Origin: Nautilus pompilius
Taxonomy: Eukaryota; Mollusca; Cephalopoda; Nautilida; Nautilidae
Assembly (NCBI GenBank): GCA_018389105.1
Contig: JACATO010000591.1
Span: 1,102,501 to 1,166,500 of the forward strand
DNA: 64,000 nucleotides
Direction: 5' to 3'
Positions 13,501 to 42,911 of the stretch are shown here, one piece after another; within the stretch, counting starts at the first letter, position 1, and every line of letters starts with the position of its first letter. The position numbers and the translations under genes were made by a program. The notes beneath the pieces were generated by a model. The model worked only from the letters and a program-made list of their open reading frames with translations, was not told where the DNA came from and ran no database searches.

Positions 13501-16500
13501 TTTCATTTCCTAAGTCATTCAATCTATTATTATGCAATCAACTTTTTCTTTGCTTTGGAAAATGGTTAAGTAGATCAGACAAATTAGCTTTGAATTGTTA
13601 GTGATGCTAAGAGGAATGTAATTCAAAAACTGATTTAACATAATCACAAATCCCCCCCAAAAAAAACTTATAAAGAAATAATCAGACACAAATGATTTAG
13701 TTTAGTAGGCAGCTATTTAGTATGATTTACACTGTGTGATAACATATAACATTTTTAAAATTGTAATATACAATCAAAATTATTGTGTCTTTATATAGCA
13801 TAGTTAATGATACAATATCATTTTGCATCTATTTGTATTATTTTGGAACACATTGCTTTTCTGTTCTCTCTTTTGTCCTAGACCTAGAGTATATCATTTC
13901 TGATCAGCAAGTGCTTTATAAATATAGAGTTTCATTAAACACTTCTGGGTCACATGATTATATTTGTGCTATGTTGCATATCAAATCTCAATTGATTTTG
14001 TTTTAATTGCATTTGCTGGTCTGGATCAATCGTAGCAGGTGTGACATTTTGCATTGATCGATCACTTGACGTGCAAATAACTAAGCGAAATACATGTAAT
14101 TGTCTCAAGATCGGAAATTTTAAAAGAAAAATGTGAATCATGAAGTAATGACAAGTGCATGTTTTTTTGTTTTTATTGAAAGCCAAGCCACAAATACATT
14201 GTTGGATTTGGTGTTATAAAGGACCATGTTATAGTGAGGCCCTAGTGTACTTAAAATTATGTCAACTGTTTCTGAATAATGTCTCTGCTTATTATAGTTT
14301 GTTTTGTTTCAAAGAGTTAACAGTGATAATGTCTTAGAGCAACATTTTTTTTAGCTTTATTTAACTTTTTTGAATATTTAAAAATTTAATTTGTAAGCAG
14401 TTATATAAACAAATTATAGCAAGTTTGATCTATACTAATTAATCTCCATTTATATTTGAACTAAGCTAAAAATATGTAATCAATTTAAAATTTGTGTAAT
14501 GCTGCCATACATAACTGAGGGGCAAACAACTTGTTCTTGTAGACACAGACCAAATACAAGTGGATGGAGCCACAGATCTGTCGGACAGATTTACCTGAAG
14601 CAGTTCAACTTCCTCCAGCAGGTGAACTAAAAGTCTGTCCTCTTTGTAACCCAGGCATGCAATATGTCAATGGATCAGATTGCACATTTTGTCCAATCAA
14701 CCATTACTCAGATGGCTCATCACCTTGCAAAGGCTGTCCAGTCTCCACCTCTCCTGTCTATGGACATCAGTACAAATGGTGGTACTCTATGCCAGATAAT
14801 ATCTCTTCGCATTGCTTAAACTTTGAAGGTGAGTCATCATTGGGTAATCTGCAGCAAAAACAATATTTTCCTGGACATTTTATTAGATTTTACTATCAGT
14901 AATGTATTCATACAATTATTTCTACTCACTCATTGCACTTTTATGTTTTTATTTTAATTTTAGATTAGACTAATCAACTTATAAAGGGAGTGGCATAAAC
15001 TACACTATCTTTTGTAATAATAAATACTTGCTTTCCAAAATCTTGATCAAGAAATATGTATACTGCAGATAATTGAACTTCTGCTGTAATTTTTTTAGAA
15101 ATCGCTCCACTAAAGAAAGTTTAAATGGCATGAAGGAGTAATTTTAATAGACAGTGACTTTAAAAAATAAATTTGGTCAGTTAATGTTTGTATACAAATT
15201 CTGTAGACTATCTGTCAAAATGTTTTCTTTAAGGCTTGCATTACAAGTTATTTCTTGATTTCTATTAAACTTGTTTTTATTATTATAAATTGTTTGAGGA
15301 GTATGCCTGTATACTTACAGGGAGTGGGTATTGATCCTGACAGAGCAATCCCTTAAATATGTTTCTAAGGTTTCACATGGGTTTATTCTATCAGGACCAG
15401 TACCCACTCTTTGTAAATGTATGGATTACTCTTCAAAAGATATCAGAAAATTGATTTTTAACATCCTGTTGAAGAGAATTCTAAATATTTTTCTTACTCC
15501 AGATCCCTCCTCCAAACAACTTTCTTGAGCTCTCTCTGGTAATCACTCTAAGTTGATGCTGGTTGAAGACATGTCAATCACTTCAACTAAACTTGCATTT
15601 GAAACCATCTCGATATTTCCATCTCTTCTGCAACCTAATGGTTGGCTGCTTCTCTTGCTTGCTTCTTTGTGATTCTATCTTTACCTGGGTAAGCAATTCT
15701 AATTGTTTTTGTTTCAGCTCACCAAATGAATGTGCATTGCCAGCAAACTGGTCTTTCTTCACATTGTACAATATGCCATTGTGTCCCAGGATGTATACAA
15801 CCTCATTCATCACTCCAGTTTTTTCAAAGCTGTGATCCACTCTCTCTTTACCATGCCTTTCTTAATTCTGTTTACCAGGCTGAGTGAGTCTGTTAGGGTC
15901 ACAATTATGTCTTCAACTTTAGTGTTACTGATTGCTCATACCAAGGTTGCTTCAAAAGCCTTGAACAGCACTGAATAAATACGATCAGTCCTGCTGAGCT
16001 GTTGACCACTCACAGCACACCCTACTACCTTACCAAACTGCGATATCCTCTCTCAGAGACCAATTTATGATCAGTCCTGTTGAGCTATTGACCATTCACA
16101 ACACACCTTGCTACCTTACCAAACTGTGACATCTTCTCTCAGAGACCAATTTGTTGCTATTATTACTGTAAAATTCCTTTTATTCCAACCATTCACTCAC
16201 TAATGCATCTTTAAACTGCTTATTCTTTTCCTGTAGGCTCTTTTTTCTGTTCTTGATGTTCTGGGATTTGAGCTGCTGTGCATCATCCATCCTGTCCTGA
16301 TGTTCTCCACTGGGCAGATTCCCTGAACACACACTCATGCTCCTCTAATTCAGGATTCTAATGTTTTAATCTCTGTTCTATTTCCTTGTTTCTCACAAGG
16401 TTTCAAGTTGACTATTTTGGTGATTGCCATCAGGAAGGTCTGTGCTGTTAGGAACTTCTATGTCTCTCTTTGATACCACTGAGTCCCATCCAGTATCTGA

Positions 16501-19500
16501 GCATCTCACATGATGTGGACCTGACATGGCCTTGTTCTGCACTGTCTGTAATTCATCTAGGGCTGAAATGTTTTCATTTGATTCCAAGTGATTGCACATT
16601 GTTCACCTTATCAAGTTGGCTAGGCCTTCACCTTGACTGTAAGATGGTGAATGTATGTTGTGGTGACATATTTTCCAATCACAACACCAGTATGTGACTG
16701 AGTTGACCTATGGTACTATTTATTTTGCATACAAGATGCTTAAGACAAGAGCAATGATATATGAATGAGTTGCTAACATCCAGAAGGCCTTGTCTGCCTG
16801 AATATTCATGGAATTCTCTTGTGTTCAGTTAAACAGGCTGTCACAAATAATTTGGAGATTCTCTACTGCTTCCATAGGGGTATCAACAGTACACTAAATA
16901 ATATAATCATTGTATATGTGTGATATCAACACTAATATTAATAGTTTATTATCAGGTTGGCCAAGCATACCTTGAACTATATAAAGGTAAATGGAGACCT
17001 GAACTAACTTTATGTATTTTCAAACACCATTCCCTGAAATTCATTTCATATCTTCTAGTGTCCAATAAAGTTAGGATCCATTGGATGAAAATGGTTATCA
17101 GCTTGGTGGCCAGGATACCAATATCTACATGATTATATGCAGCATCTACATCTTATAACCTTGTTTTCTCTGCATGTGCTGCTGTATTTTGTGGACCAGA
17201 GCCTTTTAATTTGATGTAGTTGTTGGCCTTGGCCTAGCTCAGGCATTAAAACTCCCTATTCCTCCAAATCTTTCATCAGTCTTCTTGCTGTAATGCTTTT
17301 CAGGTATTTGCCATTATTATGATTCTGTATCATTTCAGTTAAAAGTGGTTCTTGAACAGCTTTGGCAAGATCGTTCTACAATCTTTCATTTGCTGCAACT
17401 CTAACACTTGTCAATAACTCTGTGATGGATTGGACTAGTTTCTCCACATCTTCCCAGAAGGTCCCTTGATCATTGGGTATCTTGGCCTGGTGCAGAATCC
17501 TCCTTAATTGTCTTGAGCATAGCTTCCAGCTCTCCTACTGTTCCTGACTTTTCCTCTGGTCACCATGTTTTTATGCACCTGTCTAGTTAAGTCTAGGTAG
17601 CTCTGTATCCCCATGCCATTGGGCTGTAATTAACTTTGATATCCTCTGAAGAAAATCCTTACCTTCTTATCTGTTTGCAATAGTCTACTATCTGGTGCTT
17701 TTATCTGTGCTGGACTCACAATATTGCTGCTGGAAATCCTACTCTTTATCTTTGGTAGCTTCCCAAACTTTTTAGAGACTGCAATGTCCATAGGGTCACT
17801 TTGCATGCAAAAATTTATTCCATTTATCTATTTTACACTTCTCTGAGATATTTGCATATGCACTTGCTGCCTAATTAAACTACCTTTTCTTTTATCATTA
17901 ATTTTACCCTCTCTCTTGACATTTGTATACTCACTACTTGTCTTTATCATCTCCTCCCATACTTTATCCACATCCTCAATCATCCACTTGGGCTTCCTCT
18001 ATTGCTTCCACTGCACTTCTGATTTTTTCCACAAATATCTTTTCCTTAATTTTGTAGCAAAACCTGGGTGCTCTACTGCTGAGGTCTGAGTCTTTTCCTT
18101 ATTCTCGCAAACAACAACTACAAAAAAAATCTCTATGATAAGAATAATTGATATATAGATTTTTATAATTTTACCTGTTCTTAGAACACATTAGTTCAGA
18201 AATATGGTCAATAAAGAAACTTGTGAGGTTAACTGCACAAATTGACTTTCTGCTGTCCATCAAGCTGACACTGATCTATCATTCCTACAAAATTTTTTTT
18301 TTTTCATTTTCACAATTTTTTTGTTTTCTTATGGTGTCATTTTGTTTTTCTAAATTGTGCGCACATGAATGCACAAGTCTTGTTACTGGTTGTAAATTAT
18401 ACTTCAAAATTAAAAGCCTTTTATTGTTGTTTTACTTGATTAATAGGTATAATGTTGATGAATTACACTGGGGAACACTCATTTTGTTGCATTAAAAAAA
18501 ATACTTTTTTCTAGTCAATTTGAATATGTAGATTTTAATTTTAAAGTCGGTTTTTGTCTGCAAGCTACAGATTTCATGCAATTTGACATTTTTTATTTTT
18601 CGTTATTTTAACAAATTCCAACATTAATCAAAATTCTTCTGTTCACTTTAATCTTAAAACGGCAAAAAAGTCATTTAAAAATATTTATTGAAGCAAAAGA
18701 TAGAGAATTAAAAAATTTTATGAGTAAATTAAATTATCTAGTGTTGATCGTGCCATATTTTCATTAGTTTTTATCTGAATGTGTATTTTATCCAGGAAGG
18801 AATTTGCGTTTGTAACTTTTGCGTTTGTACACTTTATCTTGGCAATCTCGTTTAATGCTCCAGCAGTAGTCAGCCATCATGCTTTTGTTCCAGCGCCCTT
18901 GGTAACGTTCTTCCATGATCTTTAGGTCTTGGTGGAATCGTTCTCCTTGTTCGTCACTTACAGCTCCCAGATTGTCAGGGAATTTATCAAGGTGGCTGTT
19001 CAAAAAATGAAGCTTGATGCTCATATTGCACCCGAGATCACGAAAAGCGAGGAGCATTGTGTTCACAAGATCACAGTAGTTTTCCGCTTTATAGTTTCCG
19101 AGAAAGTTCTGAACAACTGCCACAAAAGATAACCATGCTGCTTTTTCCAAAGCATTCATCTTAGCAACAAACTGATGATCATGAAATAGTGTTCTAATTT
19201 GTGGGCCATCAAACACACCTGCTTTGATTTTTTCAAATGATAACCCTGGTAAAGCTGTGATGATGTGTTGAAAACATTCACCTTCGGTTTTTAGGGCTTT
19301 AACAAATTGCTTTATCAAACCTAATTTTATGTGAAGAGGAGGAAAGATGATCTTATCTCTGTTTACAATTGGCTCTTTTATGATATTTGGCATGCCAGCT
19401 TTAAGAGTTTCACGGATAGGCCAGTTCTTTTGGACCCAACGTTTGTCTCGTGCTCGGCTGTCCCACATACAAAGGAAACATGGAAACTTGGTAAAACCTT

Positions 19501-22500
19501 TCTGTTGTCCAAGAAGAAAATTGACTATTTTTAAGTCCACACAAATGATCCAATTGTGCTCATGATATTTTAATAAGTCCATGACTATTCTCACATCATC
19601 ATAGTCTTCTCGCAAATGCACAGAATGACCGATGTGTACCGCTCCATAAACATTGCCATTATGTAAAAGAACACACTTTAGACTACGTTTTGAACTGTCC
19701 AAAAAGAGTCTCCATTCGGCAGGATTATAGTAAGATACACCCAGTTCTTTAAGAAGCCCTGGAATGTCATGGCAGTAAACAAAATGTTTGTCTTCTGAAA
19801 AGAAAGCTACAAAAAGTTGGTCACGATTTCTAAAATATGAAACTTTAACAGAGTGATCAACAAGATTTCTACTTTGTAATCTTGATGCCAAAACCTCTGC
19901 TGCTTTTTTTGAAAGGCCCAAATCTCGCACTAAATCATTTAATTCAACTTGCAGAAGAGGCTTAGGGGTGGGAAAAGGTTCAGAGTCTGAAGAACAATTC
20001 TCCGACGACGAACATTTTTCTGCCACTTCACTGTCACTACTATTTTGTTTGTTTGTATCATCTTCAATGTCTTTATCGTCTAATGAAGGTAAGCCTTTAA
20101 ATATTGGAACAGGAACTTCTCTAGAGTGGGGAGTAGGCCGAATAGCTGAGGGAATGTTTGGATACGTAATTTTATGTCGGTTTTTTTTTTCCAACTCCCG
20201 ATGTGTTTACCATGCAGAAATAACAGTCAGTTAAATGGTTGGTTGGTTCACGCCAAACCATCGGAACTCCAAAAGGTAGACTTTTACGTTTTCCTTTGGT
20301 CCAGTCTCGAAGCATTTCTTCACAATTGTGACACACAACATGAGGCGCCCATTACTTGTCTTGGTCACCAAGATGAACTTCAAAATATGCCTTGTAAGCA
20401 CGCTTGACAAAGGAGGATACATTACGTTTTTGACGATTAGTGTGTAGCATCCACATATGTAGCAGAAGGCATTAGGCTTGTTTCTGCAATGATTTCTCTT
20501 AATAGAAGCCATGTTTAAACTGAAACAAATGATAAATTATAATTTAATTATAAAAATACAAAAAGTTATAAATTTATATGGACATGAAAATGCTTATATA
20601 TGGTTTACGTAAGTTCACATTGTAAAATTTCACTAACCTCAAATTGCATGCAAACTAAAGCTTGTAGAGAAAAACTAATTTCAGATTTGAAATCAGCGCC
20701 TAAAGTTCTATCAAAATTTGTTAAAATATTCCATGCAACTGAAAATTATTTAAAATTTGTTCCCCTGTGTTATTAAAGTACCTATTGTACAAGTCATTTT
20801 AGCACCACTGAAGAGAGATTCTTTTTTTGACAGTGTGTTGATTTTCATATACAGCAAATATGTTTCATAATTTTGTATTGTAGAGCGGAAATGCATGACA
20901 AATTCTGGTTGGATACCATCCGGTGACTACATTGAGACCAAGTATGGGCTAGGTGAAGCGGGATATTTATTGTTGGTTTTCAATGTTGCTGGATTCAGAG
21001 GAAAAGCAGCAGTTATGGATGGAAAGGCAGTAAACTTTGGAATGTTTCAATTTGTCTTTGAAACTAACTGTACAGGAGAATGTAGATTGTTCTTCATGGT
21101 TGTAAGTGATCCTTTTTTGTTTTTTTTCATTCCTCTACTTTATTAAGTATTGGTGGTTATACAGCATAGGCATGTTATTGATTTCTTTGATAATGACATC
21201 ATTGTACACAAGAATTAATTTTTTTCTTTTTTCCTCAGGATTTTCAGGATTCTAGACCAAATGTTGTCAAGAAATGGTTTGGTTCACAACAGAAACAGAG
21301 TTTTATGTAAGCTGACATTGCTTAGAATGTATGCCTTTATTAATAAGATTATTTTTTTTAATAGGACTGTAGAAAATTATGCTATCACAAAATGGATATG
21401 ATAATCTTTTTAACAAAGCATAAATATTACAGAATCTGTTTCTGCTGCTGTAGTGTTTTGTGTTATATATATATATATATCTGTAATTTGAAAATTACAC
21501 GGCTTGTACTGTGAAAAATTATCTTCCATAACTTGTTTTGATTTTTCATGTTAATTTAGATGATTTCCCTAAATCATACACTATATCTGTTACCGAGATT
21601 GAATGGTATTGACTGTGTGTCTTGAAGTTAGGAGAGGGATTCTCAAAGCAAGTAAGCAAGCAGACTATATGTAATATGTCGGACAAAAGAACCTACTGCA
21701 CTCATGGTAGCTTCATAAACTAATTTTATTTAACCCCCCACTGAAGTTTGGCTGTTATAAATGGCATATGATGCATACCAAACATTTTGTGTGTGCATAT
21801 GTATATTTTTTACATGTTATCAAATATACTATGAACAAAAACCTAGCACCTCTTTTTAAAATTCATTCACACAGTATATGTATATGTAGAGAAATCTAAT
21901 GTTGTAAAGGAATTAGAAAAGCAATGTGTAACTTCTTGAACTATCTTAATGTAGAAAAGCTGGGGAAATCCACTTATTGATTCAAATCTGCCATTCTTGA
22001 CTTTTAGTTGTCAATACCCTAAGACAAAAGCCTCACCACCACCATTTCTTTATTTCCATGTTTGTTTAGCAGATATGAATTGGTGAAAGTGTGATGCATC
22101 TTTGAATATGCATGTTACATCAGGCAAGATCACAGTTGTTAACAATGGCTTCCATCAAACAACCAGTCTAGTATACCCAAGACTATTGCATAGTGCATAA
22201 ACTTGATGGTGACTGTGAATTTGGCAGTTCTGAGAAATATTGCTTAATTTATTTGGGGTTTTTTGACTTGATTTGCAGTATGTAAGGATAATTATGATAA
22301 AAGAAAGATCCTTGGAACCTTTCCACCATGTCATTAATTACATGTTTCTATTTGTGATCATTTAAGAAAAGATACCACAAATCATTTCAATTTTTGTGTC
22401 TAAGTTAAAAACCTTTGTTTAGCTTTCTTCTAGACAACTAAAGCCAAGAATTATTTAACTACATATTGTGTATTACATTATTATATTCATGGAGATAACT

Positions 22501-41320: not shown

Positions 41321-42457
41321 GTAAGTATCTAAGTTGTCCGTGAACCTTCATGGGAGGGGAGATAATCGACTCGTGCCCCGGGCCCTCGGTGCTTCTGCAG
41401 GGGTGGTAAACTTTGATCAGCTGCTCCCTTAAGCCGTTTAGAAGTTTGCAACCCTAGCGTAGCCCCGTCGGCACGGCACCGAATAATTTGGAATGTTTTG
41501 GAGATGAAGCCGACATCTGGTCCATTTGGAGGGAGGAGCGTCCACGAGGGCGGCTGCTGGACCCTGTATCTGGACTGTGAAGCATTTTTTCTGATTGACG
41601 ATGATTAATAAATCGAAACCATTCAAGTATAACCGTACCTGTCTTTAGGGAAAGTCAGTCCTGGAGACAGACACCTGGGCCCTTAAACCCCGAGTGCGTG
41701 TAAGCTTATGTCAGTGCTAAAAAAATCGATCGTCTTTGTAGATTCTGTAAGTTTGTTACTTCCCTTTAATCCCTGCCAGCTGCTGCTGCTGCTGCTGACT
41801 GTGAAACCACTTCTGATGGAGCAGGGTATTCCAGACGAGGAAACCTTTCTAATGTTCCTAATATTTGTCTTTTTCAGGGAAAGAATACAGCAAGGGAGAT
41901 AGTAGATACGTTAGGTAAGCTCGATAACATGATTTTTAAGATGTAAATGTTTTGTTTACTTTTACTAATGTTTGTGTTATTTGATGCGTTGCCGTGTATA
42001 ACAAACTGACAGCTGGAGAGGACCCTGCAGAGCTTTAGAAATGAATGTCTGCCAGTCACTTTTTCAACACAGTGAATTTCTACAAAACAAACTTGTAGGA
42101 TGCTAGTGTTGGTGCCGTTAAAATGAAGCGTTTGGGTTCAAATGTTACTCTGATTGAGTGGCTCATTTGGGGAGATTCTAGTTAAGTTTTGCCAAACTGA
42201 ATTTATGCCTATGGATATTTAGGGTCCTTATGAATGGAAAGCAGTTTAGTGCTATACTGGTCGTTCTCCGATTTGATTTTTATTCTGTGCATATGACTGA
42301 GTGAACATAAAAAGTAACAATTTAGTTTTAGTGAAGACATTTGTTAGCATTAAACAACTTTTCTAATAATTGATTTTAAAGAGTTGTAAAAAATATTAAC
42401 GTTATCATCCTTGTCTATAAATCAGCATTGGATATTCTTGTTTTTCTTTTTGCACAT

Positions 42458-42502
<45 letters not shown>

Positions 42503-42911
42503 TATTATTATTATTATTATTAAAGTTGTATTAATTTGTAAAAAAAAAATTTTTTTTTCTAGCTCTGACAACTTTGCCGTGTGTATGGAAAGTATCACAG
42601 CTTTTGTGGATGGTCCTCTGTGTTTTCTGACAATTGTGTCATTTCTGAAGAACTGGCCAAGCCGATACGTGCTGCAGTTGGTAGTGTCTCTCTGCCAGTT
42701 GTATGGTGACTGCTTGTATTTCATGACGGAGTACAGAGACGGCTTCAGTCACTCAGAGATTGACAATATACAGTACTTTTGGTTTTATTTTATGTTTATG
42801 AACCTGTGCTGGATTGTTATACCTCTAATTCTCACTTTTCAGGCAGCTTACTACCTGATACGTGCTCAAAGAAATGTAGACAAAACTGCATTTGGGAAAA
42901 AAAGGAAATGA
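41020..42911 (+). CDS. EBP: EBP, 3-beta-hydroxysteroid delta8,delta7-isomerase (emopamil-binding protein)
   Basis: An ER membrane enzyme that moves the sterol ring double bond from C8-C9 to C7-C8 in sterol synthesis. Three exons (41020-41320, 41878-41914, 42563-42911) join in phase to 228 residues; human EBP has 230. HPYYP near the N-terminus and NYLPNDR match HPYWP and NFVPNDR. Five hydrophobic segments are visible (about 32-51, 63-86, 121-141, 149-167, 185-212). The residues known to line the human active site occur at the same numbers: H76, E80, E122, T125, N193 and W196. WKEYSKGDSRY and LYFMTEYRDGF are near-identical family signatures. The C-terminus is Lys-rich (GKKRK), as in human EBP, and suits ER retention. 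The H76/E80/E122/T125 set argues for active EBP rather than EBP-like (EBPL). Confidence 0.95.
41878..41914 (+). CDS. EBP: EBP exon 2 (residues 101-112), 37-bp micro-exon
   Basis: Encodes only WKEYSKGDSRYV. Acceptor tttttcag, donor gtaagc. The family motif and matching phases on both sides make this tiny exon secure. It is far too short to appear as an ORF. Confidence 0.93.
42459..42522. repeat. (TTA)n microsatellite next to EBP exon 3 acceptor
   Basis: About 21 trinucleotide units with one slip near 42500. The run ends about 40 bases before the splice acceptor of EBP exon 3. Confidence 0.95.
42563..42911 (+). CDS. EBP: EBP exon 3 (residues 113-228)
   Basis: Acceptor ttttttctag at 42562 completes a split Ser codon, and the TGA is at 42909-42911. 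It holds E122, T125, N193, W196 and the last three membrane segments. A long ATT/TTA microsatellite ends 40 bases upstream of it. Confidence 0.94.

What the first reader, a model, noticed from the sequence alone, without database searches (positions are those of the whole stretch)
18466..20769. An 'uncharacterized' multi-copy protein family sits inside a complete DNA transposon with TTA target duplication
The gene at 20512-18788 belongs to a protein family I know only as repeated hypothetical proteins in invertebrate genomes. Here it is bracketed by matched ends (CACTGGGGAACA / CACAGGGGAACA), about 150-bp imperfect TIRs and direct TTA flanks, with nothing else inside. That gives the family a natural role as the transposase. 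The ends recall CACTA/EnSpm, the TSD recalls PIF/Harbinger, and the protein resembles neither at sight. It may be a distinct superfamily.
Basis: partly seen in the sequence, partly recalled or inferred. Interest (0 to 1): 0.85.

Follow-up and report, generated by a model that had tools for sequence, protein, structure and literature searches.

The report
A young Chapaev3-type animal DNA transposon
The 'uncharacterized' protein is most likely the transposase of a complete, recently mobile cut-and-paste transposon whose ends, target site and protein motifs fit the known Chapaev3 group, so it looks like a new family of a known kind rather than a new superfamily.

Summary
18466-20769 is a complete 2304-bp DNA transposon in a 727.6-Mb genome. 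A DNA search scored 40 places at 97-100% identity. In the 38 copies read with both ends, the element lies between A-TWA and TWA-T, 38 of 38 on each side. At one locus, tandem-repeat units without the element carry one TSD copy, an empty site. The protein is one 574-codon ORF, uninterrupted in 5 of 38 copies; the window's copy is broken.

The 'distinct superfamily' reading is not supported. TWA duplications between A and T are published for Chapaev3 in particular; CAC..GTG ends and C(2)C, LH and H(4)H motifs for Chapaev at large (PMC4079192). All are met. No Chapaev3 sequence was available for comparison, and Pfam, PDB and structure prediction gave no significant match.

Two related families in the same genome have similar ends; one includes a very young internally deleted class. 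One oddity: 5 of 38 copies have duplications that differ at the middle base only, against about 0.04 expected from mutation.

The parts
18463..18465 (.). left target site duplication, TTA (preceded by A)
   Evidence: TWA preceded by A in 38 of 38 two-ended copies
18466..18620 (.). left terminal inverted repeat (beyond the 3' end of the gene), starts CACTGGGGAACA; inner limit approximate
18788..20512 (-). transposase gene; broken in this copy (two frame changes and a stop in the N-terminal part); 574 codons in 5 of 38 copies
18788..19582 (-). C-terminal part, open in the window copy: CxxC, LH, HxxxxH and the presumed last E
20620..20769 (.). right terminal inverted repeat, ends TGTTCCCCTGTG; inner limit approximate
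20770..20772 (.). right target site duplication, TTA (followed by T)
   Evidence: TWA followed by T in 38 of 38 two-ended copies

Best explanation
A young family of the Chapaev3 group (CMC/CMCT clade of DDE transposons). The single ORF encodes a transposase with an N-terminal Cys/His-rich, probably zinc-binding region (perhaps the 'Chapa' finger) and a C-terminal, presumably RNase H-like catalytic half with D272, D326, C345-x2-C348, L393-H394, H502-x4-H507 and E521 (or E524). It binds the CACTGGGGAACA ends, excises the element and inserts it at the palindromic site A-TWA-T with a 3-bp stagger, which gap repair turns into a TWA duplication. Shown: element boundaries, TWA duplication, target consensus, empty site, recent multiplication, selection on the protein between families, motif order. 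Inferred: the fold, the catalytic residues, that this protein does the cutting, and Chapaev3 membership by descent.
For: 40 places scored in the own genome. 38 of 38 two-ended copies have TWA on both sides, A before and T after. Empty site with one TSD copy. One 574-codon ORF in 5 of 38 copies. Family B encodes a 562-aa relative, 59% identical, with pS 0.81 (saturated) against pN 0.28. Mean divergence of the 38 from the column majority is 0.32%. PMC4079192 (passages, section 14): all Chapaev3 elements its authors examined have TWA TSDs and lie between A and T; Chapaev at large has CAC/GTG termini and C(2)C, LH, H(4)H motifs; Garfield_BM is 2289 bp with a 556-aa transposase; most other Chapaev3 transposases seem single-exon. 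Here: 2304 bp, 574 aa, one exon, the motifs in that order. PMC4411706 (passages): Chapaev3 carries the Chapa zinc finger; here C17/C20, H58/C61/C64 and H93/C97/C100 are invariant between A and B.
Against: No Chapaev3 sequence could be compared. Only the TWA-between-A-and-T trait is specific to Chapaev3 in what I read; the ends and motifs are shared by Chapaev or by the wider clade. The Chapaev Pfam model DUF1280 (PF06918; PMC3985635) does not match, although HMMER's filters drop most matches above E 0.1. It matched nowhere in this genome either, but there the controls also gave nothing. Within family A, the open copies differ by 0-1 synonymous and 2-9 nonsynonymous changes (4 pairs), so no selection shows inside the recent burst. 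Structure models are weak (mean pLDDT 38.6 and 53.2), and Foldseek gave no match at E <= 0.001.
Confidence: 0.85

Rival explanations
1. A separate lineage of the CMCT clade (CACTA-Mirage-Chapaev-Transib), sister to Chapaev3 or parallel to it, that shares its target preference.
For: No Pfam match, DUF1280 (Chapaev) included. The CMCT clade in PMC12730594 (passages) shares CA..TG ends in most cases, 2-5 bp TSDs and C(2)C/H(3-4)H motifs, so those alone do not single out Chapaev3.
Against: The TWA site between A and T, the size and the single exon match Chapaev3. Chapaev3 is described as distantly related to other Chapaevs, which would explain the missing DUF1280 match.
Confidence: 0.11
2. A PIF/Harbinger element, as the 3-bp TWA duplication might suggest.
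For: Canonical Harbinger elements also make 3-bp duplications (PMC12730594).
Against: No Pfam transposase match, one ORF only, and CAC..GTG ends with CxxC/LH/HxxxxH motifs, which are those of the CMC group.
Confidence: 0.01
3. A non-autonomous carrier of a host gene or passenger ORF, moved by another element's transposase.
For: The window copy is broken, and internally deleted copies are common among the family B copies scored.
Against: The ORF recurs in families A, B and C with related ends, is under purifying selection between A and B and carries the CMC motif order.
Confidence: 0.03

Closest known systems
Chapaev3 group (Merrow, Garfield, Conan families; PMC4079192)
   Same: CAC..GTG termini, TWA TSD between A and T, about 2.3 kb (Garfield_BM 2289 bp, 556 aa), C(2)C, LH, H(4)H motifs, mostly single exon
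   Different: No direct sequence comparison was possible, so the family could not be matched to a named one
Chapaev proper (DUF1280, PF06918)
   Same: Same larger group, CAC..GTG ends, C(2)C, LH, H(4)H motifs
   Different: No DUF1280 match here
CACTA/EnSpm and Mirage (CMC)
   Same: Short TSD, CA..TG type ends, C(2)C and H(3-4)H motifs
   Different: No Pfam match to their families; the fixed A-TWA-T target is published for Chapaev3
Transib / RAG1
   Same: C(2)C and H(3-4)H motifs in a DDE core; Chapa-type N-terminal finger in RAG1 relatives (PMC4411706, which counts Chapaev and Chapaev3 as clades of the Transib superfamily)
   Different: No PDB sequence match to RAG1 or Transib at E up to 10
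PIF/Harbinger
   Same: 3-bp duplication
   Different: Different ends and motifs, one ORF here, no Pfam match

Membership tests
Chapaev3 | 3-bp TSD of TWA | tested here: met
   38 of 38 two-ended copies TWA on both sides; 33 of 38 equal left and right, 5 differ at the W; empty site with one TSD copy
Chapaev3 | A immediately 5' and T immediately 3' of the TSD | tested here: met
   38 of 38 and 38 of 38
Chapaev3 | 5'-CAC ... GTG-3' termini (Chapaev at large) | tested here: met
   window and 37 other two-ended copies, found with up to 2 substitutions allowed; L037 has CTG at the right end; family B copy L078 both ends, family C copy L080 right end
Chapaev3 | transposase with C(2)C, LH and H(4)H motifs (Chapaev at large) | tested here: met
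   C345-x2-C348, LH 393-394, H502-x4-H507; invariant in the four aligned A, B and C rows. Catalytic roles of D272, D326, E521 are inferred
Chapaev3 | N-terminal Chapa zinc finger | tested here: inconclusive
   conserved Cys/His-rich N-terminus; weak zf-AD hit, E 0.14, in 1 of 3 members; the published Chapa alignment was not available
Chapaev3 | groups with Chapaev3 transposases in a sequence tree | not testable with these tools
   no Chapaev3 sequence was reached; viral contigs and genome-contig scans found no relatives
Chapaev proper (DUF1280) | match to PF06918 | tested here: not met
   not among matches at E up to 10 (the filters drop most above 0.1)
CACTA/EnSpm | Transposase_21 domain (PF02992) | tested here: not met
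   not among matches at E up to 10 (same limit)
RNase H-like DDE transposases | predicted RNase H fold | tested here: inconclusive
   strand and helix order fits in low-confidence models; RNase H1 and HIV integrase cores among the 50 Foldseek rows shown, none with E <= 0.001

The most novel reading that the evidence does not exclude
The element can carry its old 3-nt TWA flank into the new site: paired against the target's TWA gap with a W:W mismatch and then repaired either way, this would leave TTA on one side and TAA on the other. That would be an unusual end-processing step for a CMC transposon. Alternatively, the lineage is a sister group of Chapaev3.
Probability: 0.15. Interest if true: 0.45.

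Novelty: new member of a known kind. Interest (0 to 1): 0.22.

Why it matters
The element is young, with open frames in some copies, sharp ends, an empty site and a wide palindromic target consensus. It would be a good natural system for a group related to the RAG recombinase whose biochemistry is, to my knowledge, little studied.

Tried and rejected
Distinct superfamily: not kept as the main reading, because the Chapaev/Chapaev3 traits that I could test are met. PIF/Harbinger: rejected on ends and motifs. Relatives elsewhere: five related-loci scans found none (viral contigs 34, 36, 78; genome contigs 35, 37); a DNA pattern scan of viral contigs gave one phage contig, a chance match. Pfam on the window's N-terminal fragment gave only Herpes_UL52 below its cut-off (E 0.032), taken as chance. 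Structure: the full-length model (pLDDT 38.6) and the catalytic half (53.2) are too weak for a fold claim; Foldseek had 971 rows at E <= 10, none at E <= 0.001, with separase at the top and ribosomal proteins, RNase H1 and HIV integrase cores among the 50 shown. DUF1280 in the own genome: nothing, and the controls gave nothing either, so that search shows little. The first TSD script placed some ends two bases off and printed 'no' for every TSD; it was replaced. Papers: search listings; passages of PMC4079192, PMC12730594, PMC4411706, PMC3630058 and PMC3985635; section 14 of PMC4079192; no supplements. Repbase and Dfam could not be searched, so I make no claim that this family is unpublished.
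Full report
What is there. The window is G000:C568:1102501-1166500 of a 727.6-Mb genome in 2558 contigs. At 18466-20769 lies a 2304-bp element with TTA on both sides. Read inward, its ends are CACTGGGGAACA and CACAGGGGAACA. The inverted repeats are imperfect: 56 nt at 77% inside and 100 of 147 aligned bases overall, with a local score of 47 against a mean of 21.4 and a maximum of 44 in 2000 shuffles.

Copies. The DNA search scored 40 of 1616 candidates (41 rows, one copy in two pieces), 97-100% identical. Leaving out the window copy, left matches start at query base 49-63 (the TSD is 64-66). Right matches end at 2374-2385 (the TSD is 2371-2373) in 37 of 39; two break off inside the element, and one of the 37 lacks an internal piece. 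I fetched all 39 and used the window as the fortieth. L045 and L046 had no right end in the stretch and were dropped from two-sided counts; their left flanks are also A-TAA. In the other 38, found with up to 2 substitutions allowed per end, TSDs are TTA/TTA 16, TAA/TAA 17, TTA/TAA 4, TAA/TTA 1. The base before the left TSD is A and the base after the right TSD is T in 38 of 38 each. Further out the target is a wider palindrome: purine at -5 (32 of 38), pyrimidine at +5 (37 of 38), A at -8 (26), T at -7 (20), A at +7 (22), T at +8 (21). A search with the right end alone scored 40 of 100 candidates; 18 of these places are not, and all 40 matches end at the first or third TSD base. Whether those 18 are whole copies was not checked, and both lists are capped.

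Empty site. The copy in L013 sits in a local tandem repeat. Its joined flanks match another unit in L006 at 87% over 405 bp without a break. Where the filled site has GAGA-TTA, the element, then TTA-TTAATG, this unit has GAGA-TTA-TT-ATG, with one base missing, and a second unit has GATA-TTA-TTAATG. Both lack the element and one TTA. The flank itself repeats TTA, so the exact register rests on the other copies.

The gene. The window copy is broken: its N-terminal part changes frame twice and holds a stop, and the rest is open for 472 codons. A 574-codon frame is whole in 5 of 38 copies; one of these has H in place of D326. Mean divergence of the 38 from the column majority is 0.32%, so the family spread recently. 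Among open A copies, 4 compared pairs show 0-1 synonymous and 2-9 nonsynonymous differences: no selection is visible inside the burst.

Related families. A protein search scored 145 of 6712 candidates, all at E 4.5e-119 or better, among them a second set at 64% and a third at 71-74% identity. Family B, read in one copy (L078), is 2516 bp with CACTGGTCAACA at both ends, TAA duplications between A and T and a 562-aa ORF, 59% identical to A. Of 40 scored out of 1110 candidates, 6 are full length, 31 share one kind of internal deletion (27 with one junction, 4 with a slightly different one) and 3 have other deletions, all 99-100% identical over the main piece. The list is ranked by score, so these are not population figures. 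The common deletion takes out the start codon and about 210 codons and keeps the catalytic half. Family C, read in one longer copy (L080) and a fragment (L082), is decayed; its right end read inward is CACTGGGCAACAG with TAA outside, and its left end was not found in the stretch. Between A and B, pS is 0.81 (saturated) and pN 0.28: selection kept the protein.

What the protein is. Pfam gives no match above a cut-off: nothing for the catalytic half, Herpes_UL52 at E 0.032 for the window's N-terminal fragment, and zf-AD (E 0.14) and FYVE (E 1.2) in 1 of 3 intact proteins each. PDB sequences give nothing for the catalytic half and 3 rows at E 0.74-1.9 for the profile. The motif order is D272, D326, CxxC at 345-348, LH at 393-394, HxxxxH at 502-507, E521 or E524. 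I assign the catalytic residues by this order; no structure proves it. Low-confidence models put D272 at the end of the first strand of a beta-beta-beta-alpha-beta unit and D326 just after the last one, which fits RNase H, but Foldseek is not significant.

What is known. PMC4079192 (passages; section 14) says that all Chapaev3 elements its authors examined have TWA duplications and lie between A and T, confirmed by empty sites. For Chapaev at large it gives CAC and GTG termini and C(2)C, LH and H(4)H motifs. It describes Garfield_BM as 2289 bp with a 556-aa transposase in two exons, and most other Chapaev3 genes as single-exon. PMC4411706 (passages) says that Chapaev3 carries the Chapa zinc finger and is distant from other Chapaevs. 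PMC12730594 (passages) joins EnSpm, Mirage, Chapaev, Transib and others as the CMCT clade, with 2C and 3H besides DDE, and calls Chapaev3 a sublineage of Chapaev. PMC3985635 (passages) equates DUF1280 with Chapaev; the missing DUF1280 match here fits the distance of Chapaev3 or a sister lineage. I file the element as a Chapaev3-type family, with the tree test open.

The oddity. Five of 38 copies (L021, L031, L034, L042, L043) have unequal duplications, always TTA against TAA. Mutation at the observed rate predicts about 0.04 such cases and 0.7 TSD changes of any kind. Either the excised element keeps its old 3-nt flank and a W:W mismatch is repaired, or copies have exchanged ends. In family B all 39 non-self copies scored match the query's TAA on both sides, which does not repeat the effect, but that list is ranked by score and so favours TAA. 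The main text of PMC4079192 has no occurrence of 'mismatch' or 'footprint'. The cause is open.

Noticed in passing
L021, L031, L034, L042, L043 (family A copies): Target duplications that differ at the middle base only (TTA against TAA) in 5 of 38 copies; mutation predicts about 0.04.
   Followed up: partly
G000, family B (L078 and the rows): A second family with Chapaev3-type ends in which 31 of 40 scored copies carry one kind of internal deletion that removes about 210 N-terminal codons, 99-100% identical over the main piece: a very recent burst of a derivative.
   Followed up: partly
L044, L081: Copies with H in place of the presumed catalytic D326; L044 has an otherwise open 574-codon frame.
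   Followed up: no
window 42390-42911 (+): An open stretch with an EXPERA/EBP domain (PF05241, E 1.8e-24), probably an exon of a host sterol isomerase-like gene.
   Followed up: partly
window 15980-16151 (+): An 86-bp tandem duplication, 88% identical.
   Followed up: no
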